Source: a virus. Taken from it: 23,134 bases of DNA. The translations under genes and the position numbers were made by a program. The stretch's first letter is position 1. The number at the start of each line of letters is the position of its first letter. The notes below the pieces were generated by a model. The model saw nothing but the letters and a program-made list of their open reading frames with translations. It had not been told where the DNA came from and did no database searches. The DNA lies in IMG/VR virus record IMGVR_UViG_3300021197_001115, positions 1 through 23,134 of that record. One strand, given 5' to 3'. This document shows positions 9,324-19,530 of the stretch, piece after piece.

Positions 9324-9491
9324 CTATCTAAAAAACCACGCTCTTCTTGTGGACTCCTCTTGAGTGTCTTGTGTATATTGAGTGTTCAATTGTTGTATCA
9401 TTTCCTCTAATTGTCGAATTAGTTCAGCAGACTGTTGAGCATCATACTCAGGTCTAGGGTCAGGAAATCTTTGTAGTATTAATTTTGCCAT
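9324..9491 (-). CDS. 55-aa coiled-coil-like protein behind tail nozzle gene
   Basis: A short gene whose ATG (9491) overlaps the stop of the 608-aa tail gene (TAATG) and whose TAG directly abuts the next ATG. It begins MAKLILQRFPDPRPEYDAQQ, then has a heptad-like helix (SAELIRQLEEMIQQLNTQYT) and ends QDTQEESTRRAWFFR. The helix could trimerise or pack against the tail. In P22 the gp10 nozzle gene is followed by the gene for the trimeric coiled-coil needle gp26; the position here is similar, but 55 residues is far shorter than a needle, so I do not equate them. Tight coupling at both ends makes the gene itself secure. The family is not named. Confidence 0.7.
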   Translation of the reverse strand: MAKLILQRFPDPRPEYDAQQSAELIRQLEEMIQQLNTQYTQDTQEESTRRAWFFR

Positions 9492-11317
9492 TATCTTCTA
9501 CCATCGGGTTGAATATCAAAACGTTGTGTTCCTAATCTCCAAGCGGTGCCTGTTGTATTAGAGACAACGTTGACTGTGAATTCTCTACCTCTTCCTCGTA
9601 AGCTTACAAACTCTGTAGTATCGGTAAAGGTTGCTGTCTTAATGACACTTGTCGTATTGTTTGGATAATATTTGAATTCTAAATTCATATTTAAAGTGCC
9701 TTCTTGATTTTGAATATCGGGTATTAGTTTTTGTACAAAAAGAATATCATTACCATCACCTATTTCTACAGATCCTGATTTCACAAAAGCAGTTATGGCT
9801 TCCCCATCTGCGTTATTTCCTGTCTCATGTAAAAACATTTGAGTGGCTCCTTGAGTCACTCCTAAGATTGTTTCATTATTGGCCGTGGTCGTTGGTAAGT
9901 AGTCCGAGGCTACAGGATTATCATAAACTTCTCTATCAATCCAAGTTGTTCTATCTAGTGTTCCTGTCCACCAAGTTTGTTCTAGGTAATTGTAAGCAAC
10001 AACAGCATTAATTTGATCAGAGCCTGTTCTATTATAGAACCATAGTATTTCGTTATACTCACCATTGTGTCCTGCAAAAGCATTTTCAGATCCAGTTTGA
10101 TTTATATTATTAAATACAAACTGTTCTACAGTGCAAGGTAGTTTTTTCACCGTACCATCAAAAAGATAAAAAGAATCTTGTGACATCCAATAAGAGACAC
10201 CGTTCAAATCAACACCTGCGTGACTACCAATAATTCCACAGTTCTGACCTAATTGTCTTAGACCAAAAGTAAAAGGAGGACCAATAAATTGCATTGAGTG
10301 CAATGATGTATCTGTCCATACAAGTATTTGACCTCTTGATCGCTCTGCTGCCACGATCCGTGATCCGTCAGCAATACGAAGTGAGCCCGCAGTGTTCTCC
10401 GCTGTTGGTTGATACGTATTAATATCCTCTTGACTTGAAAATCTTATCAATAAATCGTCTTGCGAACTTATTGTTCCAATTGTGTTTTCTGTTCCCATAA
10501 AAAGTAAATGTCTATCAGGAGTAGAAACTAAACTTAATCTTGAAGCAGTAGGAGCATTTGTTATAGCGGTTGCTCTTGTGCTTACACCACTTGAAGTGTC
10601 CCATCTAAAGGCACCACCATTTAGAGCGGTTGCGATTAAGTCTTCTCCAAAATTGTCCAAGGACCACTGACGAGCTTCCAAGGTTACGTTCGAAACTGTT
10701 GAGGGTTCTCCCCAAGCTCCATCACCATAGCCATCTGTACCCCAACCAAAAGCAGGTAAAGAGAATTCAGGACCAATACTTATTTGATAATTAGCATTAC
10801 CTGTTCCTCCACCTCCTGCGGTAGATCCCGATGCAGTATCTGTGTGCGTAACAACGTAAGCTGCTGTGTTTACAATAGAGGTGATTTCAAATTCATTATT
10901 CATATCTAACCCATCAATAGCTGAGAAAGAATCGAAAGTAACAAAATCTCCTTTTGAGGCACCATGACCAGTATCAGCTACCACCACTGAAGTTGTTGCG
11001 TTTGTTGTAAAAGGATTTGTAAGAGAGTCTGTAGCTCGAATAGGAGTAATGTCATAAGCTAGTCCTTCCTCTATAACATAAAGCTTTCTATCAGTGCCTA
11101 CAGCATTATATCGTGTGCCATCTAAAGCTACCCAAGCATGTTGATCACGAGCAACACCCACCAAAGTTGTAGAGATAAATTTCTCCCATCCTTTAATTTT
11201 CTGTGGTAATCCTTGAAAAAAACGTACATTATCACCATCTGTCCACTTGCCTTCGCCTGTGTAATCGGTGACTTCTTTATTGATACCTGGTGCTGGTCTA
11301 AAATTTACTAATGGCAT
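9491..11317 (-). CDS. Tail nozzle / P22 gp10-like stabilisation protein (608 aa)
   Basis: A 608-residue beta-rich protein whose N-terminus (PLVNFRPAPGINKEVTDYTG, then GKWTDGDNVRFFQGLPQKIK, GWEKF) is the pattern I associate with short-tailed phage DNA-stabilisation proteins: the P22 gp10 nozzle, equivalent in place to T7 gp12. The body contains repeated beta-propeller-like segments with aromatic pairs (GVSYWMSQDSFYLFDGTVKK, NEILWFYNRTGSDQINAVVA, YNYLEQTWWTGTLDRT). A Gly/Trp element (FGWGTDGYGDGAWGEPS) near residues 190-206 resembles the WG motifs of the 339-aa repeat protein encoded at 18511-19530. Such proteins form the lower tail tube below the portal-adaptor ring. It lies just beyond the enzyme island; its stop is coupled to the 55-aa gene. 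Confidence 0.75.
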   Translation of the reverse strand: MPLVNFRPAPGINKEVTDYTGEGKWTDGDNVRFFQGLPQKIKGWEKFISTTLVGVARDQHAWVALDGTRYNAVGTDRKLYVIEEGLAYDITPIRATDSLTNPFTTNATTSVVVADTGHGASKGDFVTFDSFSAIDGLDMNNEFEITSIVNTAAYVVTHTDTASGSTAGGGGTGNANYQISIGPEFSLPAFGWGTDGYGDGAWGEPSTVSNVTLEARQWSLDNFGEDLIATALNGGAFRWDTSSGVSTRATAITNAPTASRLSLVSTPDRHLLFMGTENTIGTISSQDDLLIRFSSQEDINTYQPTAENTAGSLRIADGSRIVAAERSRGQILVWTDTSLHSMQFIGPPFTFGLRQLGQNCGIIGSHAGVDLNGVSYWMSQDSFYLFDGTVKKLPCTVEQFVFNNINQTGSENAFAGHNGEYNEILWFYNRTGSDQINAVVAYNYLEQTWWTGTLDRTTWIDREVYDNPVASDYLPTTTANNETILGVTQGATQMFLHETGNNADGEAITAFVKSGSVEIGDGNDILFVQKLIPDIQNQEGTLNMNLEFKYYPNNTTSVIKTATFTDTTEFVSLRGRGREFTVNVVSNTTGTAWRLGTQRFDIQPDGRR

Positions 11318-11340: not shown

Positions 11341-11865
11341 CTATTTTTCTAGTATTTCTGTTTGAAAAGCAATAGTAGTTCTAAGCAAAGAACTAACCCT
11401 AGTGGGAGCAGTTGCTCTATGTGGATATTTTCCATCAAAAACTATTAATCTGTCCTGTTTAAAAGAGGCAACTTCTTTTGCTTCTTTGTTTTCATCATAA
11501 ACAATAAACTCTCCTCCCCATTCAGCTTTCCAAGGAGAAACACAATATAGATAAGTGGGAGTGCTATAATCCGAATCAGTGTGAATAGATCCATCAAATC
11601 CAGAAGGATAAATATTAGCGTGCCACCTGTGTATGTTTATATTAGGTTCGAGAAGTAATTGATTACATTTTTTATAAAGGTCATAAACTAAAGGAACAAT
11701 AAAATCTTTTTCATTTATTGACGAAGTAAAAGAGTGAGGATGTGTTTCGTCTTCATTACCTTTATTCTGAAAAGAAAATTGCAAGTGTCCTTCAATAACA
11801 TATTTATCAAAAAAACCAGTTATTAAATATGGATCGTTAATAAAATTATCAAAAATTTTAATCAT
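11341..11865 (-). CDS. 2OG-Fe(II) oxygenase-like protein (hydroxylase, 174 aa)
   Basis: This is a cupin-fold dioxygenase that would use 2-oxoglutarate, O2 and Fe(II) to hydroxylate an unknown substrate. The metal triad is visible as H95-T-D97 in GSIHTDSDYSTPTYLYCVSP, with the distal His149 in DRLIVFDGKYPHRATAPTR and R162 in LLRTTIAF as the likely 2-oxoglutarate anchor. The GGEFIVYDE strand after the HxD also fits prolyl-4-hydroxylase-like members. I chose ATG 11865, which overlaps the glycosyltransferase stop by 8 bp; a TTG four codons earlier is also in frame. There is no signal peptide. It is the last enzyme of the island before the nozzle gene. Family-level assignment is secure; the substrate is unknown. 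Confidence 0.85.
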   Translation of the reverse strand: MIKIFDNFINDPYLITGFFDKYVIEGHLQFSFQNKGNEDETHPHSFTSSINEKDFIVPLVYDLYKKCNQLLLEPNINIHRWHANIYPSGFDGSIHTDSDYSTPTYLYCVSPWKAEWGGEFIVYDENKEAKEVASFKQDRLIVFDGKYPHRATAPTRVSSLLRTTIAFQTEILEK

Positions 11866-12676
11866 TTTTTTTAGCAACTAAAGACCCAACATGACCTTTA
11901 AATGCTCTATTACCAAAGTGAGTTAAAGGCATAGCTAAGTCAGCCCAGATTTCACCACCGCACTCTTGCCATAGACGAGAGAAGTAGTAATCTTCAGATA
12001 AATATCTCATTTGTGGTTGACCTTCTTTAGTCTTAGTTTTGTAAGGTCCAACAGCGAATAAATCATAACAGTTATCAGATTTATAAGAACCCCCATTAAC
12101 TATTTGGTCAGACTCATACTTTCTTTCAGGAAACTTCTTCATCATAGTTCTAAATACTTTTCTTTTCACAAGCATCATACCTGTGGCTGCTTCTTGCACA
12201 CGAAAAAACCCTCCCTCACCTTTTAAATTTAGAGGGTCATCAAAGTTTACATTATAGCCTAAGGCTTTAGCTTCAATATCATCAGGAGTAGCATTTGGAT
12301 TTTCTTTTAAAATGTCTTTAATCTTTTCAAGATATAAATGTTTTCTAGGGTAAATTCCACAAGCTACATCTTTATCTGCACAAAGTAATCTTTGAATATT
12401 TTGCCAAGTGAAACCTATGTCAGCATCTATAAATAAAAGATGTGTAGCAACAAAATCTTGTTGATCCATCATCATAGAAACTATGGTATTTCTAGCACGA
12501 GTAATTAAACTTTCATTACCCATTGTTTGTATTCTCATTGCAACATTATTAGCTTGAGTCCAAGACTGTAACTCCAACAAGCCATGTAAAGTCGATTCAG
12601 TAAGCATACCACCATACATTGGCATTCCTAAAAATATTTTAAAGTTTTGATCTTTAATTTCTTCTGGTTTAATCAT
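11858..12676 (-). CDS. GT-A type glycosyltransferase (272 aa)
   Basis: The protein opens with a Rossmann-like strand (FKIFLGMPMYGGMLTESTLH), then RITRA-type nucleotide-binding context (GNESLITRARNTIVSMMMDQ) and the metal-binding DxD motif in THLLFIDADIGFTWQNI (D84-A-D86). Further on there is GMMLVKRKVF, an S-E-D motif (LSEDYYFSRLWQECGGEIWA, E228/D229) typical of the acceptor-side acidic residues in GT2-like enzymes, and histidines H253 and H262 (THFGNRAFKGH). It would transfer a sugar from a nucleotide-sugar to an acceptor that is not evident here. I start it at ATG 12676, which has AGAGGA just upstream; a longer frame reaching 12742 would run through the end of the previous gene and add an unconserved hydrophobic N-terminus. 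Related proteins occur in phage tail and AMG regions. Confidence 0.82.
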   Translation of the reverse strand: MIKPEEIKDQNFKIFLGMPMYGGMLTESTLHGLLELQSWTQANNVAMRIQTMGNESLITRARNTIVSMMMDQQDFVATHLLFIDADIGFTWQNIQRLLCADKDVACGIYPRKHLYLEKIKDILKENPNATPDDIEAKALGYNVNFDDPLNLKGEGGFFRVQEAATGMMLVKRKVFRTMMKKFPERKYESDQIVNGGSYKSDNCYDLFAVGPYKTKTKEGQPQMRYLSEDYYFSRLWQECGGEIWADLAMPLTHFGNRAFKGHVGSLVAKKND

Positions 12677-12689
12677 TTGTTCCTCTGTT

Positions 12690-13346
12690 CTATAATTTTT
12701 TGGGATAAAAAAAATATACAGTATTGTATCTCCAATTTCCATTAGAGTATTTACTGTGATCTTCTATATATCCTCCGTGGTTAATTGAACCATCAAAAAC
12801 AACCAACCTATTAAAAACTGAAGGTATCACACAGATATCACTTTTATAATTAGTCGTATCGAATTGTATATCAATTTCTTCAGGTGTGGGATTGTCAGGT
12901 TTCCTACTGTATAAAGCTGTGCCTCCAGAATTTATTTTGTCTAAGGTCACTAAAAAATTAAAAGTAGGGTCGGTGTGTGGCCAAAACTGTATTTCTTTTT
13001 TAGGAGTATTTATCCAAGTAAAGATGTTTGAATAAATTTCGTTGCAAGTAAAGTTACTTAAATCTATAAAAGTATTAAAAAAATCTTTTGTTTTATTCTC
13101 GTTTTTTAATCCCCATTTATTTATGTCAAATCTCATACGACAATCATAATAATCTTTGAAATTTCTACCTTCTTTACTTATTTTCCAATTAGGAAACCAA
13201 GAGTTTTCAAACATTGCGTGTATCTTTTCTGCATTTTTATAAAAATCGTCCACATATAAATATTGAAAAGAACCTATTGTTTTTTGATAAACTTTTAAAT
13301 TATCGTTTATTTCAAATAAGTTATCGTGAATGTAGGGAAAAGCCAT
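12690..13346 (-). CDS. 2OG-Fe(II) oxygenase-like protein of DUF6445 type (218 aa)
   Basis: The sequence fits the DUF6445 branch of 2OG-dependent oxygenases. The features are a W-P-H-T-D metal motif (H124, D126) in QFWPHTDPTFNFLVTLDKIN, a GGTALYSRK strand (141-149), the distal His190 in NRLVVFDGSINHGGYI and Arg206 in GNWRYNTVYFFYP. The spacing between the elements is as expected for the double-stranded beta helix. Residues 20-75 form an N-terminal helical lid. ATG 13346 overlaps the stop of the carbamoyltransferase gene (TAATG). The likely reaction is hydroxylation of a protein side chain, nucleobase or small molecule; nothing in the sequence fixes which. It is not closely similar to the other four oxygenases of the island. 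Confidence 0.83.
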   Translation of the reverse strand: MAFPYIHDNLFEINDNLKVYQKTIGSFQYLYVDDFYKNAEKIHAMFENSWFPNWKISKEGRNFKDYYDCRMRFDINKWGLKNENKTKDFFNTFIDLSNFTCNEIYSNIFTWINTPKKEIQFWPHTDPTFNFLVTLDKINSGGTALYSRKPDNPTPEEIDIQFDTTNYKSDICVIPSVFNRLVVFDGSINHGGYIEDHSKYSNGNWRYNTVYFFYPKKL

Positions 13347-14824
13347 TATTTAATCCACAAATCATTTCCGTAAACCAAAGCATCTAGCTCACTTGTATAT
13401 AATAGTTCTAAGGCATCTTTTTTATGTGCTGCAATAGGCTTACCATTAACATTTAAACTTGTATTTAATAGTACGTCACAGTTTGTTTCATTGTAAAACT
13501 TTTGTATGAGTTGAGTAAAAACTTCATTATTTTCAACAGTCTGATGTCTACAAGTCTCATCTACATGTGAAATAGCAGGGTATTTATTAAAATCAATAGG
13601 ATCTGCATAAAGCATATAAGGGCTTTTTGAAAAAGATTTGTTTATTGTAGAACAACCAAAAGGTCTAAACTTTTCTCTTTTTTTAATATTATTAACCTTT
13701 TCTCTCATATCTTTATCTCTTGGATCTGCTAATATAGATCTATTCCCTAACGCTCTAGGTCCTATCTCTCCGTGTCCTTGATACCAACCAACTATTTTTT
13801 GATTTTTTAAAAGCTCTACTGTCTTGTTCATTACCATTTCTGAGGGTGCTTCATTGGGACTTTCATCTGATTGACAGAAAGGAAAGTTGTCTAATTTAAA
13901 ATTAGATAAATTATGTTTCATTCTTAAATACTCTAAAGCTCCTAAACTTAAACCATCATCATTAGGATGAGGAGGTATAACAATATTTCTAAACTTTTTT
14001 CTAAACTGAGTATTCCAATTTACATTTAGTGCCACACCTCCTGTGTAACAAAAATATTCATCCTCTTTGAAATGTTTGGACATGTAGTCTAATAATAAAT
14101 CTCCAGCATACTGATGAAGAGTTCTCAACCAATCAATTCTTGGTTGAGGTCTATCTTTATAATAATTTACATCAAAAATATGTTCTACTTGTCTAATGCT
14201 AAACTGTTTTAGAAATTCATAAAATTCTTTATCTATCTGACCATAACTTTGTAAAGCCATTAATTTTCCCGCTATATCAATACTATCGTATGCTTTAACA
14301 TCAAAATAAGTTCCTGTTTCAGAAAGAAGATGGCCAATTGAACCGTATTGAGCATCTCCCCTTACTTTGCATTTACCTTGTTCTATCAGTGTCCAAATAG
14401 TGCCATAATCTCCAAAACCATCATAAGAAAAACCATTTAGTTTATGTGGTTCTTTCACTAAAGGCCAACAACTTAAATGATGTGCCCAATGATGATTTAC
14501 TCTAGTAACTTTACAATCAGCTTTAAAATCAACTTCTGGTCTTGAAGGAAAAAAAATATCGTTTCTAGTATTAAAATTGTAGAACCATGGATCAAAAACA
14601 ATTGCAATTTCATCAAGATTTTTTGATCTTATGCCCCACTCTTCTTCAATAATTTTTTCCCATAATGTCCAATCAAAACCTTGTTCTTTATAGTTTTGAT
14701 TTTTCATTACAGAATGATGTTTAATTTGATATTTTCTTTCAGTTTTTAAATACCTTACTTTTTCTCCATCAAAGTAACTAAAGTTACTGTCATGATCACA
14801 TATTCTTAAACCTAGTAATTTCAA
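13346..14824 (-). CDS. O-carbamoyltransferase, NodU/CmcH/TobZ family (492 aa)
   Basis: These enzymes move a carbamoyl group from carbamoyl phosphate, through carbamoyl-AMP, to a hydroxyl of a sugar or other acceptor. Both domains are present. N-terminal Kae1-like part: HDSN (11-14), the metal motif HHWAHH (111-116, with H112/H116 and D135 spaced as in TobZ), YDGFGDYG, GSIGHLLSETG, AGKLMALQSYG, TGGVALNVNWNTQ (261-273) and HPNDDGLSLGA (286-296). C-terminal part: GWYQGHGEIGPRALGNRSIL (346-365) with ADPR after it, KREKFRPFGCS, HVDETCRHQTV and LLNTSLNVNGKPIA. No active-site element looks lost. It starts at TTG 14824, overlapping the previous stop (TTGA), with GAGG upstream. At 492 residues it is somewhat shorter than typical NodU. 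The acceptor is unknown; it sits among hydroxylases and a glycosyltransferase. Confidence 0.95.
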   Translation of the reverse strand: MKLLGLRICDHDSNFSYFDGEKVRYLKTERKYQIKHHSVMKNQNYKEQGFDWTLWEKIIEEEWGIRSKNLDEIAIVFDPWFYNFNTRNDIFFPSRPEVDFKADCKVTRVNHHWAHHLSCWPLVKEPHKLNGFSYDGFGDYGTIWTLIEQGKCKVRGDAQYGSIGHLLSETGTYFDVKAYDSIDIAGKLMALQSYGQIDKEFYEFLKQFSIRQVEHIFDVNYYKDRPQPRIDWLRTLHQYAGDLLLDYMSKHFKEDEYFCYTGGVALNVNWNTQFRKKFRNIVIPPHPNDDGLSLGALEYLRMKHNLSNFKLDNFPFCQSDESPNEAPSEMVMNKTVELLKNQKIVGWYQGHGEIGPRALGNRSILADPRDKDMREKVNNIKKREKFRPFGCSTINKSFSKSPYMLYADPIDFNKYPAISHVDETCRHQTVENNEVFTQLIQKFYNETNCDVLLNTSLNVNGKPIAAHKKDALELLYTSELDALVYGNDLWIK

Positions 14825-15363
14825 TTCATAACCTCGAAGTTTGCCGAAAATATTATTCTTTGTTCATCCTTATTCGGAGGAACTTTATGTGGTAAATAAC
14901 CTGGAAAAATAACAAGTTTATTTTTTTCTGCTACAACACTTTTAATTATTTCAGGTGTGTAAGGAAATCCTGGAATATAAAAATTTGTAACGGAAGAATT
15001 GTTTGTGGCATCTACATAAAAAATTAAAGAATATGAGTTTTCCTTACAATGATGTACATGAATATCATGATGTTCATTTTTAAAATATTTTTGAAACCAT
15101 GATTCTGTTACTATAAATTTTTCTTTGTTTAATACATTTTTACAAAAAATATGAAGGTAAGAAAAAATAAAATTCTTAAAATTATTTAAACTTGAATTAA
15201 ATAAAATATTTTTTTCTAAATAAAAGGTTGAGTGAACATTTTCTTCTTTAGGCATCTGTAAATTATTTATATAATTTTTTAGAATCTGACTATCGTAATC
15301 AGTAATTATTTCATAAATAGAAATATCAAAAGATGTTTTAAAAATTTTTAAGTCAGTAGACAT
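14821..15363 (-). CDS. Putative 2OG-Fe(II) oxygenase, PF13759/TIGR02466-like (180 aa)
   Basis: The C-terminal half matches this family: W89 (TESWFQKYFKNEH), a His-rich metal region HHDIHVHHCKENSYSLIFYV (98-117), a beta segment FYIPGFPYTPEI, then KLVIFPGYLPHKVPPNKDEQ (149-168) with distal His159, and R169 in QRIIFSANF. The N-terminal ~85 residues are helical and unusually rich in Asn, Ile, Lys and Phe. The usual H-x-D position reads H-x-H (H102-V-H104), as seen in this family, so the third metal ligand is unclear. ATG 15363 is 10 bp after the previous stop. The local DNA is extremely AT-rich. The substrate is unknown, and it may have diverged from catalysis. Confidence 0.75.
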   Translation of the reverse strand: MSTDLKIFKTSFDISIYEIITDYDSQILKNYINNLQMPKEENVHSTFYLEKNILFNSSLNNFKNFIFSYLHIFCKNVLNKEKFIVTESWFQKYFKNEHHDIHVHHCKENSYSLIFYVDATNNSSVTNFYIPGFPYTPEIIKSVVAEKNKLVIFPGYLPHKVPPNKDEQRIIFSANFEVMN

Positions 15364-15373
15364 TAAAAGTTTA

Positions 15374-15967
15374 TCAAGTTTCTCCTAACATACTTCTTTT
15401 GTCATATTTGTATTCTTTAAACTCACCCTCTTGGTCAACATAATGCAAAAAGACAGTTATGAAGTGATCATGTGTGCATATCTCTCTCCAATGTATATTA
15501 TTCATACCTTTAAAAATTAATGCATTATTAGGTTTCATCGGATATTTATAGTTAATTTTATATCTATTATAGTTACCCTCAGCATCAAAATATTTATAGT
15601 CAGATGATTCATCTACTTCTCCTACAAACAATTCGTAAGGTTCATCTATAGGATCAGCTCCAAGACAGAGAGCCACTGTATATTCACAAGAAGGTCTATC
15701 TTTATGAATAGGTAAATCAGAACCTTTATCATATATTCTTAAAAAAGAATAAGTAGGAAATAATTTTTTACCTACATTTTGTTCAACGACAGGTGTACTT
15801 AAATCACATATTGTTTCCATAAGAAAATCACTATGCTCAGATATCAAAGAAGATGTTTGTGTATCAACTTTAAAACTTTTCTTGTTGCTATACTTTAAGA
15901 TGCAATAACTATTTAAAATAGTTAATACTTGGTTTGGTAAAAAGTTTTCTATAAATAAAGGAATCAT
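15374..15967 (-). CDS. 2OG-Fe(II) oxygenase-like protein (197 aa)
   Basis: The hallmark block FLRIYDKGSDLPIHKDRPSC followed by EYTVALCLG holds the metal pair H88-x-D90, and the distal part NNALIFKGMNNIHWREICTH ends with H159 and the strand FITVFLHYVDQEG. This arrangement, with HKDRPSCE and a terminal FLHY, is one I recognise from a group of uncharacterised phage and marine bacterial 2OG oxygenases. The usual 2OG-binding arginine is not obvious. I start at ATG 15967, which overlaps the upstream stop as TAATG; a GTG four codons earlier would intrude further into the previous gene. Residues 110-135 (SSDYKYFDAEGNYNRYK region) form an inserted acidic/aromatic loop. Substrate unknown. Confidence 0.8.
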   Translation of the reverse strand: MIPLFIENFLPNQVLTILNSYCILKYSNKKSFKVDTQTSSLISEHSDFLMETICDLSTPVVEQNVGKKLFPTYSFLRIYDKGSDLPIHKDRPSCEYTVALCLGADPIDEPYELFVGEVDESSDYKYFDAEGNYNRYKINYKYPMKPNNALIFKGMNNIHWREICTHDHFITVFLHYVDQEGEFKEYKYDKRSMLGET

Positions 15968-16515
15968 TATATAATCCACCCAATCAAAGCATACCTTGTG
16001 CCTTTTGTAATTTTATTAACTCTGTGTGGAAATATAAAATTAGAGGGAAAAACAATTGCATCCCCTGTGCCTTGAACATATTGTTCTAAGGAGTTGTCAT
16101 TTAAACTAAATACAAATTCACCACCTTCAAAAGAATCATTTAAATTTAGAGAAATGGATATATGTCTTTCATTGGCTTTATTTCCAAAATCTTCATGAAA
16201 ATCATAACCTACTTTATATTGATTGGTTTCGTACTTCAATAAATCTAATTGTGAAATTCTTTCAAAATGAAAAGAAGGATAATTCTTAGAATAATTATTT
16301 GCTATTTGATAAAATATAGACTGAACGTAATTAGATACAATTCTTTGACCAAAGGAATTTGGTTTTAATAAAGTTTTTGTGACACAGTTTCTTACCTCTT
16401 TATTTACACCACTAACTGTAGCAGCGTCATCAAAATCATTACCAAAATATTTAATTATTTTTTGACAAGCCTTTGAAGGTATGACTTTTCGTATTTCTTT
16501 AATATATTTTTTCAC
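15967..16515 (-). CDS. Prolyl-4-hydroxylase-like 2OG-Fe(II) oxygenase (182 aa)
   Basis: First enzyme of the island in reading order. The double-stranded beta-helix core is complete: H107-E-D109 in VGYDFHEDFGNKANERHISI, the GGEFVF strand (131-136), a G-D-A-I-V-FP element (151-157), distal H164 in FIFPHRVNKITKG and R174 in TRYALIGWII. This layout is that of prolyl-4-hydroxylase and PiuC-type enzymes, which oxidise a protein or peptide side chain. Proteins of this type in T4-like cyanophages are often encoded near tail-fibre genes, as here. The start is GTG 16515, four bases after the previous stop; no strong Shine-Dalgarno site is visible. A fairly secure oxygenase; proline as the target is only an analogy. 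Confidence 0.87.
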   Translation of the reverse strand: MKKYIKEIRKVIPSKACQKIIKYFGNDFDDAATVSGVNKEVRNCVTKTLLKPNSFGQRIVSNYVQSIFYQIANNYSKNYPSFHFERISQLDLLKYETNQYKVGYDFHEDFGNKANERHISISLNLNDSFEGGEFVFSLNDNSLEQYVQGTGDAIVFPSNFIFPHRVNKITKGTRYALIGWII

Positions 16516-16519
16516 TTGA

Positions 16520-16972
16520 TTAGTAAGTGATACTATGTCCTGAAAGGTAATTGTTTCGAGCTGTATCAGCCGCAGTTGTTGCCGCAGTTACAGCAGCAGA
16601 ATCATCGTCTGCATTTGCATCAGAATGTCCATTATATGTTGAGTTATAATTTGTTTTCCAAACATCTTGAGCTTCTGCTCTAATGACTACATTAGTGGCC
16701 CATTGAGGAAAAGAAGAAAGAGAAAGATTATCTCTGTTATCGATGTATTCAATATGACCTGTATTAGAACCTGCATCCCACTGTAAAGCATGAATACTAG
16801 CGTCCACTTCTGTGTGAGATCTTAAATTTAAATATACATTATTATCTAAATATACATCAGACTCAGTGTTACCTGTGCCTTTTGCTGGTCCATCACTATT
16901 TAAACTACCAGCAGCATCATAAATAATAGTTATTCTACTATTTACTGTTGTGTTGTTTACGGTTGTTGCCAT
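16520..16972 (-). CDS. Conserved 150-aa tail-region protein
   Basis: This protein starts MATTVNNTTVNSRITIIYDA and contains VDASIHALQWDAGSNTGHIE followed by YIDNRDNLSLSSFPQWA, a block that I associate with small conserved proteins next to tail-fibre genes of marine phages. The C-terminus (SAAVTAATTAADTARNNYL) is an Ala/Thr helix. It may be a fibre-associated component or assembly helper; no family name is certain. The ATG at 16972 lies inside the 3' end of the four-cysteine gene, a 35-bp overlap in a different frame, so translation is probably coupled. It is the last gene before the oxygenase island. Confidence 0.7.
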   Translation of the reverse strand: MATTVNNTTVNSRITIIYDAAGSLNSDGPAKGTGNTESDVYLDNNVYLNLRSHTEVDASIHALQWDAGSNTGHIEYIDNRDNLSLSSFPQWATNVVIRAEAQDVWKTNYNSTYNGHSDANADDDSAAVTAATTAADTARNNYLSGHSITY

Positions 16973-17399
16973 CTTTTTTTACCTTTTTACCTTTCTTCAC
17001 TTTTACCTTATTATTACTTAATTGTCTAATGGTTTCCTCTTCTAAACTTTTGTCATTGGTATCAATAGCTTTTTGATGATTACCAATTACTTCAAATATA
17101 GAGGAAGCAGTTTCCATGGCTTTTTTAGCATTACCACTTTGAGCTAAAACCTTTGTCATTATATTATTTGACTGCACCATTTCGTTTCTAAAAGATTCAG
17201 TAGCGGCTTTTGTGCCCATTATTTGTTGTGAGTTTTCAATTAAAAGTAAAGGAATCCATGCTATGGAACACCCCCACTCTTGTACATCTAATCCTGTTTG
17301 AGGATTCTTACCTTGAAGCATATTATACCAAACACATTGATGTTTAATACATTTCTTATTTAAAAGAGGACACTTACCATCAGGATCGAATATAGGCAC
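16938..17399 (-). CDS. Conserved phage protein with N-terminal four-cysteine motif (153 aa)
   Basis: The first 45 residues form a clear cysteine site: C10-x6-C17-x4-C22-x21-C44, in DPDGKCPLLNKKCIKHQCVW and QEWGCSIAWIP. It could bind zinc or an iron-sulphur cluster; the spacing does not decide between them. I recognise the MPIFDPDGKCPLL and GKNPQTG pieces as a conserved small phage protein of unknown role. After a hydrophobic bridge (WIPLLLIENSQQ) the rest is helical (AATESFRNEMVQSNNIM, then KKAMETASSIFEVIGNHQKA) and ends in a basic tail (KVKVKKGKKVKKDGNN). It starts at GTG 17399, overlapping the stop of the tail-fibre gene (TAGTG), so it is probably made together with it. Confidence 0.78.
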   Translation of the reverse strand: MPIFDPDGKCPLLNKKCIKHQCVWYNMLQGKNPQTGLDVQEWGCSIAWIPLLLIENSQQIMGTKAATESFRNEMVQSNNIMTKVLAQSGNAKKAMETASSIFEVIGNHQKAIDTNDKSLEEETIRQLSNNKVKVKKGKKVKKDGNNRKQHNSK

Positions 17400-18460
17400 T
17401 AATCTTTAGCGGCTACAATTACGTTTGCGTATTTAATGTTCATACCTGGCATTGCAAACTGAGCATTCGGTGCAGTAGCACCTGACAATGAAGCACTTGG
17501 AACAGAAAATGGGTGAGTATGTCCTCCACCACCACCTGCATTGTCTACTGTTGTGGTATCAGGGCTAGCTGATCTTTGTGTTCTTCCAAATTGACTAACA
17601 CTGCCTCCTCCTGGACCCGAACTTATAATGGTTGCTTGGTGATTATGAGAAGCTATTTCTGGAGTTGATAATGTGTGAGAACCAACAGAACCTGTTACAG
17701 AAACAGAACCTGAAACAGGTAAATCTTTTTGCTCTGTATTTCTAGAGGCTGCAAAAGTTGTTTGAAAAGTATCACTACCCCCTGTGCCTGCACCTGAACC
17801 TGTAGTCACACGAAAAGCAGCATCACTTAATGCAGCAGCAGTGTCTTGTGTCCAACCTGTTGGAGCTGAGGCTTGATAGAAAACCATTTTAGTTCCTGAA
17901 GCAAAAGGTTCAACTCCTGTTAAACCAGCACCACTACCTGTAAATAAAGTAGCCTGAACTTGTCCATTACTTCTAAGTGTGATGTTACCACCACCCGCTG
18001 TTAAATTTTCACCCGCAGCAATAGTCACTGCTCCTAATTTGTCGACGGCATTGTACATTTTAAAATTAGCTGTACCCTCACAGTAAACATGCGAGTAAGC
18101 ACTTTGTGCTATGACAATACCGTTAGCTGTATGTCCTGTTGCAGCTATGGTAAGAGTTTGAGAACCTGTTGTATTGTTAAAGAAAACATAATCGCTTTCA
18201 GTGGCAGGAATAAATACTACGATATCTCCTGTTAAAGCTCCTGTAAGTTCAATTACTTTATTAGAAGATTCAGCAGTTGGATCTGCATCCGCAGTTGAAA
18301 GAGTAATATTAGCAGAACCTGCAACAGATTTAGCTAAATAACCTGCTGAAAATGCATCTAAAACATCTAAATTATTATTGGTATTTGTACCCCAGGTATT
18401 AGCGTTAGCCCCTGTTTCCATCTTTTCTAATTTGAATCTACTTGTATATGTACTTGCCAT
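17399..18460 (-). CDS. Tail-fibre protein with tail-collar-like C-terminus (353 aa)
   Basis: Residues 1-45 (MASTYTSRFKLEKMETGANA, then NTWGTNTNNNLDVLDAFSAG) are a conserved marine phage fibre N-terminus, probably the part attached to the tail. The middle is beta-rich with an LFTGSGAGLTGV repeat-like element (172-183) typical of trimeric fibres. From about residue 190 the sequence follows phage tail-collar domains: MVFYQASAPTGWTQDTA (192-208), a Gly/Ser-rich insertion, ASHNHQ (H272, H274), GHTHPF (H314, H316) and the end AMPGMNIKYANVIVAAKD. The paired His-x-His motifs are likely metal sites in the trimer, as in related fibre tips. It therefore probably contacts the host. ATG 18460 has GAGAGG upstream in the 50-bp gap. 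It is a plausible substrate of the neighbouring modifying enzymes, which is only inference. Confidence 0.88.
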   Translation of the reverse strand: MASTYTSRFKLEKMETGANANTWGTNTNNNLDVLDAFSAGYLAKSVAGSANITLSTADADPTAESSNKVIELTGALTGDIVVFIPATESDYVFFNNTTGSQTLTIAATGHTANGIVIAQSAYSHVYCEGTANFKMYNAVDKLGAVTIAAGENLTAGGGNITLRSNGQVQATLFTGSGAGLTGVEPFASGTKMVFYQASAPTGWTQDTAAALSDAAFRVTTGSGAGTGGSDTFQTTFAASRNTEQKDLPVSGSVSVTGSVGSHTLSTPEIASHNHQATIISSGPGGGSVSQFGRTQRSASPDTTTVDNAGGGGGHTHPFSVPSASLSGATAPNAQFAMPGMNIKYANVIVAAKD

Positions 18461-18510: not shown

Positions 18511-19530
18511 TTATGCTGCGTCTACCCCTGTCCAAGTATTACTTGCACCTGTCGTTATGCCTGTCCATGTATTGCTAGCCCCTGGAGAAACATTTGCCCA
18601 AGGTGTGGCAAACGGATTTCCTGTGACTATTGATAAGTCAAGTCCTGTTACGTTAACAATAGCTCCACCTGTAGCTGTTGCTGTTCCTGCAGCAAAACTC
18701 ATGGCAACTGTGGAAACACTTACAATTACACCAGTTCCTACCTCTACTGTTTCCGTACCTAAAGCAGAGGTCATTGAAACTCCTGTAGGTTGTACAAGAG
18801 CATCTGCCTCTGCCACAGCAGTTCCAAGTGCAGAAGTCATAGTGACTGGAACAGGATCTACTTGTGTAAATATTTCAATAGTAGGAGTTCCAATAGCAAA
18901 GTCTAATTGATCGGAAGGTGCAATAACTGCAACACTTCCCTCACCAGAAACAGTCGCTCCTGATAAAGCTACACTTACTAATTGACTATCTAAAGTAACA
19001 AGAGATGTTCCTGTTTCAGTTGTATCACCTAGAGCACTTGTCATCTCTAAGCCTGTTACAGAAACTATGACACCTGAACCTACTTCAACTGTAGAAGTGC
19101 CTAAGTCCGTGGACATCGCCACACCTGTGACGCTAACCTCTTGAGTTATATTTTCATTCCATGCGAAAGAACCCCAAGTATTTCTTCCCCAACCTGCATC
19201 AACGGTTCCGTCTGCTACTTCAGTGCCTAAACCAAATGATGTGGATAAACTTCCGAGAACGACACCTGCGCCTTCTTCAATTGCTAATGCTCCAGAGAGT
19301 TGTGTTTCGAATGAAACACCTGTAGGAAACGTGACATTTTCAGGTTCACCTACTGCAGTGCCTAACGCACTGGTCATAGATAAAGTTGAAACGGCTACTA
19401 ATGCATCTGCAACAACAGACTCAGTTCCTAATGCTGTTGTAGTCGATAACCCAGTAACAGATACCGTGATCGAGCTTTGTTGGCCAAATGCCCCTTCGCC
19501 CCAATTATTTTCACCCCAAGCATCTGCCAT
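18511..19530 (-). CDS. Repetitive Ser/Thr/Val-rich beta tail protein (339 aa)
   Basis: The protein is built from degenerate repeats of about 20-25 residues centred on V-T-G-L-x-M-T-S-A-L-G-T-x-x-V-E (MTSALG at residues 52-57, 163-168, 231-236 and 253-258, with weaker copies between). It starts with a WG motif (WGENNWGEGAFG, 5-16), repeats it at 114-127 (WGRNTWGSFAWNEN), and ends with two copies of GASNTWTG (residues 317-324 and 328-335). It has no cysteine or charged core and would form an elongated beta structure. ATG 19530 has GAGGAG upstream. It probably belongs to the tail or an appendage, given the collar-fibre gene next to it. The high Thr/Ser content makes it a candidate for glycosylation; this is inference. 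Confidence 0.75.
   Translation of the reverse strand: MADAWGENNWGEGAFGQQSSITVSVTGLSTTTALGTESVVADALVAVSTLSMTSALGTAVGEPENVTFPTGVSFETQLSGALAIEEGAGVVLGSLSTSFGLGTEVADGTVDAGWGRNTWGSFAWNENITQEVSVTGVAMSTDLGTSTVEVGSGVIVSVTGLEMTSALGDTTETGTSLVTLDSQLVSVALSGATVSGEGSVAVIAPSDQLDFAIGTPTIEIFTQVDPVPVTMTSALGTAVAEADALVQPTGVSMTSALGTETVEVGTGVIVSVSTVAMSFAAGTATATGGAIVNVTGLDLSIVTGNPFATPWANVSPGASNTWTGITTGASNTWTGVDAA
18511..19530 (-). repeat. Internal amino-acid repeats of tail protein
   Basis: At least four good copies of the MTSALG core and several degraded ones are seen in the coding sequence, together with two WGxxxWG elements and two tandem TGASNTWTG-type units at the end. The DNA copies differ, so this is an old protein-level repeat and not a recent DNA duplication. 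Confidence 0.65.

What the first reader, a model, noticed from the sequence alone, without database searches (positions are those of the whole stretch)
11341..16515. Seven-enzyme modification island in tail genes: five 2OG-Fe(II) oxygenases, a carbamoyltransferase and a glycosyltransferase
Seven consecutive minus-strand genes encode five divergent 2OG oxygenase-like proteins, a NodU-type O-carbamoyltransferase with all motifs intact and a GT-A glycosyltransferase. They sit between fibre genes and the tail nozzle gene. Hydroxylases create hydroxyls that glycosyl and carbamoyl transferases can use, so the genes read like one stepwise decoration pathway. Targets could be a fibre or repeat protein, a host or phage glycan, or the DNA. 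Some phages pair TET-like oxygenases with such transferases on DNA, but these oxygenases do not look TET-like and no DNA methylase is seen. Five oxygenases in a row is unusual.
Basis: partly seen in the sequence, partly recalled or inferred. Interest (0 to 1): 0.9.

Follow-up and report, generated by a model that had tools for sequence, protein, structure and literature searches.

The report
Phage tail-fibre modification gene island
A marine phage, probably infecting SAR11 bacteria, carries five oxygen-using hydroxylases, a sugar-adding enzyme and a carbamoyl-adding enzyme beside its tail-fibre gene; the same cassette occurs in nearly all its relatives and most likely decorates the phage's own tail proteins, which nobody has yet tested.

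Summary
Five of the seven genes are 2OG-Fe(II) oxygenases, one is an intact NodU-type carbamoyltransferase and one a GT-A glycosyltransferase. The order is OX-OX-OX-carbamoyl-OX-GT-OX, so the longest unbroken run is three. Five oxygenases is not unusual: all 82 non-identical relatives have one GT and one to five oxygenases between fibre and nozzle genes, and 20 have five. Oxygenase runs beside tail genes also occur in cultured pelagiphages. New here: (1) g6, the 'ferrochelatase' family reported as an oxygenase partner in pelagiphages, is itself a 2OG oxygenase (AF2 pLDDT 91; top 50 PDB folds are Fe/2OG enzymes). (2) The two fibre-proximal oxygenases are exchanged with the fibre type (rank correlations 0.55-0.67) but not with the nozzle gene (0.06 and -0.03), and are fused in six loci. 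(3) The GT's closest solved structures are the collagen hydroxylysine enzymes LH3 and COLGALT1. The best reading is hydroxylate-then-glycosylate decoration of phage tail or adhesin proteins, with carbamoylation or sulfation as optional extras. Host-glycan modification remains a serious rival. DNA modification is unlikely. The substrate is untested.

The parts
15967..16515 (-). g7 / OX1, 182 aa: PKHD/P4H-like 2OG-Fe(II) oxygenase, first gene after the fibre accessory genes
   Evidence: PF13640 1e-13; PDB hits PKHD PiuC, P4H, mimivirus L230; H107, D109, H164, R174 invariant in 37 homologues
15374..15979 (-). g6 / OX2, 201 aa: 2OG-Fe(II) oxygenase of the family annotated 'ferrochelatase' (phrog_2954)
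   Evidence: phrog_2954 3e-34; AF2 pLDDT 91.1; top 50 PDB folds are all Fe/2OG oxygenases; H92, D94, H163 invariant; none of 43 members matches ferrochelatase in Pfam
14821..15363 (-). g5, 180 aa: 2OG-FeII_Oxy_5 family protein with an HxH...H metal motif
   Evidence: PF13759 1e-6; HxH conserved across divergent subfamilies
13346..14824 (-). g4, 492 aa: NodU/TobZ-type O-carbamoyltransferase
   Evidence: PF16861 7e-49, PF02543 2e-17; phrog_1601 5e-129; PDB 7xb6, GdmN, TobZ
12690..13346 (-). g3, 218 aa: DUF6445 protein, probable 2OG-Fe(II) oxygenase (phrog_1644 'minor coat protein')
   Evidence: DUF6445 in 10/10 and 2OG-FeII_Oxy_3 in 2/10 homologues; H124, D126, H190 invariant; hhalign 92.8% to g1's family
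11858..12676 (-). g2, 272 aa: GT-A glycosyltransferase, phrog_1574 (the ORF can be extended to 12742)
   Evidence: present in 82/82 relatives; Anp1 in 16/32 homologues; AF2 pLDDT 82.7; best PDB folds LH3, COLGALT1, Mnn9, mimivirus R699
11341..11877 (-). g1, 178 aa: 2OG-Fe(II) oxygenase (phrog_274, misnamed 'DNA endonuclease V')
   Evidence: PF13640 5e-7; phrog_274 2e-23; H99, D101, H153, R166 invariant
16520..16972 (-). w12, 150 aa: fibre accessory protein that marks fibre type A
   Evidence: between fibre and OX1 in type A loci
16938..17399 (-). w11, 153 aa: fibre accessory protein with a Cys-rich N-terminus
17399..18460 (-). 353-aa tail fibre; candidate substrate or partner
   Evidence: PHROGs 31104 (unknown function) and 12796 (tail fiber protein); conserved N-terminus, variable tip
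9491..11317 (-). 608-aa tail nozzle/stabilisation protein; downstream boundary of the island
   Evidence: phrog_3287 1e-86; homologues annotated as phage stabilisation or tail proteins

Best explanation
This is a fibre-linked virion-protein modification cassette. The constant core is an oxygenase pair next to the fibre (OX1 = g7, OX2 = g6) and one GT-A glycosyltransferase (g2). OX1 and OX2 most likely hydroxylate residues of the tail fibre, adhesin or its accessory proteins as these are made late in infection. The GT then adds a sugar to a hydroxylated residue, by analogy with collagen hydroxylysine glycosylation (LH3/COLGALT1; mimivirus L230/R699). Extra oxygenases (g5, g3, g1) and the carbamoyltransferase (g4) are interchangeable tailoring steps that vary between relatives. 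The decoration would tune receptor binding, stability or recognition of the virion. Shown: enzyme families, conserved synteny, exchange of OX1/OX2 with fibre type, OX2-OX1 fusion, predicted folds of OX2 and GT. Inferred: hydroxylation of protein, identity of the substrate, order of steps, late expression, benefit.
For: Fibre, accessory genes, OX1, OX2 and GT occur in this order upstream of the nozzle in nearly all informative IMG/VR relatives, and fibre-OX1-OX2-nozzle recurs in the HTVC023P lineage, whose nozzle is about 40% identical. The fibre type predicts the oxygenase subfamily (type A: 37 of 47 first genes are family 11; type D: 6 of 6 are the OX2-OX1 fusion). Rank Mantel correlations: fibre-OX1 0.55, fibre-OX2 0.67, OX1-OX2 0.69, against OX1-nozzle 0.06 and OX2-nozzle -0.03. 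HTVC033P, whose searched 18-kb tail region has no nozzle homologue, carries Gly-rich proteins (34% Gly) plus the same OX set, 46-65% identical. The g7 family matches PKHD, P4H and lysyl hydroxylases. The GT's top 12 PDB folds are all LH3 or COLGALT1. Relatives' cassettes also hold JmjC_2 proteins (a protein-hydroxylase family, from general knowledge) and sulfotransferases.
Against: No substrate, activity or virion modification has been measured. Within type A, OX1/OX2 do not track the fibre sequence (0.07 and 0.22), so matching is only at the level of type and may be gene linkage. Fibre N-terminus and GT co-vary in lineage 1 (partial rho 0.41 given the nozzle) but not in lineage 2 (-0.05). GT homologues of phiM12 and DLP6 lie in the DNA-replication region, as do cyanophage 'ferrochelatase' genes. 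GT-A folds resemble one another and TM-scores are only about 0.5.
Confidence: 0.48

Rival explanations
1. The enzymes modify the host's surface glycan or receptor (hydroxylation, glycosylation, carbamoylation, sulfation), for example to block superinfection or release virions from debris. The oxygenase set matches the fibre type because both concern the same receptor.
For: Carbamoyl-, sulfo- and glycosyltransferases usually act on glycans or small molecules (family knowledge). Co-exchange with fibre type is equally expected. Pelagimyophage glycosyltransferases have been discussed as LPS modification (cited in PMC9599517).
Against: The genes lie inside the structural (presumably late) gene block. 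g7's relatives are protein hydroxylases, and the GT's nearest folds act on hydroxylysine in protein.
Confidence: 0.22
2. The genes are tail-linked accessory genes with no shared pathway: oxygenases with separate targets accumulate at a recombination hot spot beside the fibre.
For: Content varies strongly; accessory oxygenases and carbamoyltransferase occur at several positions around fibre and nozzle. Island genes are AT-rich (oxygenases 29% GC, nozzle 38%).
Against: The GT is present in 82/82 and at least one oxygenase in 82/82 relatives; OX2-OX1 fusions; GT strongly conserved (76-86% identity); purifying selection.
Confidence: 0.16
3. The pathway modifies phage DNA bases (hydroxymethyl-type acceptor, then glycosyl and carbamoyl groups).
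For: TET-type phage systems pair oxygenases with such transferases (general knowledge). GT homologues in phiM12 and DLP6 sit among replication genes. Some HTVC023P-type clades carry thymidine hypermodification genes (PMC9599517).
Against: 0/8 near-complete relatives have thymidylate synthase and only 3/8 a C5-methylase. No TET match in 8 (no positive control rang). The published hypermodification genes lie near the polymerase, not here.
Confidence: 0.07
4. Auxiliary metabolism: the genes alter host 2-oxoglutarate or iron/heme metabolism, as proposed for oxygenase-ferrochelatase pairs.
For: Published interpretations for pelagiphages and cyanophages (PMC9599517; PMC11561400; PMC3037559).
Against: The 'ferrochelatase' is itself a 2OG oxygenase. 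The genes are linked to fibre type, not to metabolic genes.
Confidence: 0.05

Closest known systems
HTVC023P-type pelagiphages (HTVC023P, HTVC027P, 023Pt_psg01; Wittmers et al. 2022, PMC9599517)
   Same: Same phage lineage group and the same fibre-oxygenase-nozzle layout with a GT homologue nearby; co-located 2OG oxygenases and 'ferrochelatase' already reported.
   Different: Window lineage has a diverged nozzle (about 40% identity), its GT lies before instead of after the nozzle, and it has more oxygenases plus a carbamoyltransferase inside the island.
Pelagimyophages HTVC008M and Mosig EXVC030M; cyanophage S-RIM44
   Same: Runs of 2OG oxygenases including a 'ferrochelatase' member beside fibre, baseplate or neck genes; HTVC008M also has an oxygenase-carbamoyltransferase neighbourhood.
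   Different: Different phage families and gene sets; no GT of this family annotated next to those runs; the HTVC008M carbamoyltransferase is in another genome region.
Collagen lysyl hydroxylase-glycosyltransferase enzymes (human LH3, COLGALT1; mimivirus L230, R699)
   Same: Fe/2OG protein hydroxylase paired with a GT-A enzyme; the GT's top PDB folds, and L230 is matched by the g7 profile at 2e-4.
   Different: No usable sequence similarity for the GT; no collagen Gly-X-Y protein noticed; hydroxylase and GT are separate genes here; substrate unknown.
NodU/TobZ O-carbamoyltransferases
   Same: Both domains present; 2e-33 to a PDB carbamoyltransferase.
   Different: Phage subfamily phrog_1601; acceptor unknown.

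Membership tests
2OG-Fe(II) oxygenase superfamily (g7, g6, g5, g3, g1) | double-stranded beta-helix fold | tested here: met
   Predicted structure for g6 only; the others by profile match
2OG-Fe(II) oxygenase superfamily (g7, g6, g3, g1) | HxD...H metal triad | tested here: met
   Invariant in family alignments
2OG-Fe(II) oxygenase superfamily (g5) | HxD...H metal triad | tested here: not met
   Conserved HxH...H instead; still matches PF13759, so filed only as a PF13759 member
2OG-Fe(II) oxygenase superfamily (g6) | basic 2OG-binding residue after the distal His | tested here: inconclusive
   g7 has R174 at H+10; g6 has invariant R81, R95 and R165 but none at the usual spacing
Ferrochelatase (PF00762) | sequence match to the family and chelatase fold | tested here: not met
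   None of 43 members match at E<=10; no chelatase among the top 50 folds
NodU/CmcH O-carbamoyltransferase | Kae1-like N domain and Carbam_trans_C domain | tested here: met
   motifs HHWAHH, GGVALN and GEIGPRALGNRSI visible in the sequence
GT-A glycosyltransferase | GT-A fold with DxD | tested here: met
   D84-A-D86, both Asp invariant
Collagen-type hydroxylysine glycosyltransferase | transfer of sugar to hydroxylysine in protein | not testable with these tools
   Fold resemblance only
TET/JBP DNA-modification system | TET/JBP oxygenase with a C5-methylase | tested here: inconclusive
   No TET match in 8 relatives, but the control did not ring; C5-methylase in 3/8. The window's own genome is incomplete.

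The most novel reading that the evidence does not exclude
Abundant marine phages build their own collagen-like protein modification pathway: phage hydroxylases matched to the fibre type hydroxylate tail-fibre or adhesin residues, and a near-universal phage glycosyltransferase sugars them, with carbamoyl or sulfate as interchangeable caps. This would be a modular post-translational code on receptor-binding proteins.
Probability: 0.3. Interest if true: 0.88.

Novelty: new variant of a known kind. Interest (0 to 1): 0.62.

Why it matters
[quoted passage not shown] Their oxygenases have been read as metabolic genes paired with ferrochelatase, and the two gene categories were found enriched in seasonal viruses (PMC11561400). 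Showing that the 'ferrochelatase' is another oxygenase, and that the oxygenase pair is exchanged with the fibre type, moves the question from iron metabolism to host recognition. It becomes directly testable with virion proteomics on cultured phages.

Tried and rejected
DNA hypermodification: searched thymidylate synthase, C5-methylase and TET in eight near-complete relatives. Ferrochelatase identity of g6: rejected by Pfam and fold. PHROG names 'DNA endonuclease V', 'minor coat protein' and 'ferrochelatase' for g1, g3 and g6: rejected as transferred labels. GT relatives in the PDB by sequence: only STIV A197 at E 0.03, not relied on. Fine-scale matching of oxygenase and fibre sequence inside type A: absent. 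Fibre-GT covariation: present in lineage 1 but not replicated in lineage 2, so not used as proof. Conserved Lys/Pro/Asn in fibres: only candidate sites, no decisive pattern. A first idea that the P-RSM6 'porphyrin biosynthesis' gene was an OX fusion was dropped because that label is used for cobS. Expression timing of the HTVC027P oxygenases could not be read from the main text. Literature searches found no report of hydroxylated phage fibres.
Full report
What is there. The window is a 23,134-base IMG/VR virus record, a structural-gene fragment coded almost wholly on the minus strand. Its nozzle protein (9491-11317, phrog_3287) is 39-47% identical to those of HTVC023P-type pelagiphages and of phage DSL-LC04 and 84-92% identical to 80 further IMG/VR loci. 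A SAR11 host is therefore inferred, not shown. The seven genes of the finding are present. Pfam places g7 and g1 in 2OG-FeII_Oxy_3, g5 in 2OG-FeII_Oxy_5 and g4 in the two carbamoyltransferase domains. g3 belongs to DUF6445 (10 of 10 homologues), has an invariant H-x-D...H and aligns by profile to g1's family (92.8%), so it is very probably an oxygenase too.

The 'ferrochelatase'. g6 has no Pfam match but is phrog_2954, named ferrochelatase. None of 43 family members matches the ferrochelatase model. The AlphaFold2 model is confident (pLDDT 91.1, pTM 0.88), and all 50 listed PDB matches are Fe/2OG oxygenases, led by Pseudomonas putida prolyl 4-hydroxylase (E 1e-7). H92, D94 and H163 are invariant. 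The cultured HTVC023P gene annotated 'putative ferrochelatase' is a homologue. Wittmers et al. 2022 (PMC9599517) report that wherever ferrochelatase occurs an oxygenase is adjacent and call them partner genes; a 2024 time series (PMC11561400) builds on this; Sullivan et al. 2010 (PMC3037559) list a 'ferrochelatase domain' protein in cyanophages. On this evidence the pair is two oxygenases, here called OX2 (g6) and OX1 (g7).

The glycosyltransferase. g2 (phrog_1574, no function assigned) is 76-86% identical across relatives while OX1 is 23-80%. 16 of 32 homologues match Pfam Anp1. The model (pLDDT 82.7) has as best PDB folds human LH3 and COLGALT1 (ranks 1-12, E 4e-8 to 4e-7), then Mnn9 and, after two unnamed glycosyltransferase entries, the mimivirus protein R699. 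Work on a mimivirus collagen glucosyltransferase is listed in PMC9546862 (abstract only). TM-scores are about 0.5 and the LH3 domain matched was not reported, so this suggests but does not prove a hydroxylysine acceptor.

Comparative anatomy. After removing identical nozzle sequences, 82 relatives of the window's lineage (the window included) have a complete fibre-nozzle interval: all have exactly one GT and one to five oxygenases there (five in 20), and 18 have a carbamoyltransferase anywhere in the locus. Other cassettes hold sulfotransferases and JmjC_2 proteins. A second lineage around HTVC023P has fibre-accessory-OX1-OX2-nozzle, with the GT behind the nozzle next to another glycosyltransferase. 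Pelagimyophages HTVC008M and Mosig and cyanophage S-RIM44 have oxygenase runs beside tail, baseplate or neck genes. Fe(II)-dependent oxygenases were already listed among genes of marine phage metaviromic islands with 'host recognition' as inferred function (PMC3909814). So the locus type is known at annotation level; its logic was not.

Fibre-oxygenase exchange. In 85 dereplicated loci the fibre accessory type predicts OX1 and OX2. Rank Mantel correlations are 0.55 (fibre-OX1), 0.67 (fibre-OX2) and 0.69 (OX1-OX2), but 0.05 for fibre-nozzle, 0.06 for OX1-nozzle and 0.09 for OX2-GT. The gene directly before the fibre correlates with it at only 0.16, so adjacency alone does not give the pattern. 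Type D carries an OX2-OX1 fusion in 6 of 6 loci; phrog_3531, matched in two halves by g6 and g7, looks like the same fusion. In HTVC033P, whose searched 18-kb stretch has no nozzle homologue, two Gly-rich proteins (34% Gly) and an accessory gene precede the same three oxygenases. Limits: inside type A the oxygenases do not follow the fibre sequence, and fibre-GT covariation in lineage 1 (partial 0.41 given the nozzle) is not seen in lineage 2. Mantel tests on related sequences are only a partial guard against shared ancestry.

Mechanism. The most economical reading is late modification of tail proteins: type-matched hydroxylases act on the fibre, adhesin or accessory proteins, the GT adds sugar, and carbamoyl or sulfate groups are optional. 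That the oxygenases are protein hydroxylases rests on g7's match to PKHD and P4H enzymes and g6's fold neighbours. Host-receptor modification predicts much of the same genomics and cannot be excluded. DNA modification is disfavoured, although GT homologues of other phages sit among replication genes, while one cyanophage homologue sits directly behind tail collar fibre genes.

Verdict. The corrected annotation of OX2, the exchange of the oxygenase pair with fibre type and the collagen-enzyme-like GT make virion protein modification the leading, testable hypothesis.

Noticed in passing
window 14821-15363 and about 150 of 890 related oxygenases: The PF13759-type protein g5 and divergent relatives keep HxH...H instead of HxD...H, a possible three-histidine metal site; its metal and co-substrate are worth testing.
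   Followed up: partly
window 16938-17399: w11 has a Cys-rich N-terminus (CPLLNKKCIKHQCVW...GC) and no Pfam hit above its cut-off; it sits between fibre and oxygenases in type A loci and may bind a metal.
   Followed up: no
window 17399-18460: The fibre's C-terminal part carries HNH and HTH pairs, conserved in type A fibres, resembling HxH metal-binding fibre tips.
   Followed up: partly
window 18511-19530: The 339-aa repeat protein family is nearly free of Lys, His, Tyr, Arg and Cys (each 0.4% or less) and rich in Thr/Ser/Ala/Gly.
   Followed up: no
L156 1-525 and L157 1-3023: Tryptophan halogenase genes lie near the oxygenase runs in HTVC008M and S-RIM44; halogenation could be a further decoration step.
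   Followed up: no
L034 and L035, upstream of the nozzle: Two relatives carry four cassette genes in inverted orientation between the fibre accessory gene and the GT; HTVC027P and some lineage 2 loci also have inverted oxygenase genes.
   Followed up: no
PHROGs 274, 1644, 2954: The PHROG labels DNA endonuclease V, minor coat protein and ferrochelatase are attached to families that g1, g3 and g6 show to be (probable) 2OG oxygenases, so marine phage annotations using them are likely wrong.
   Followed up: yes
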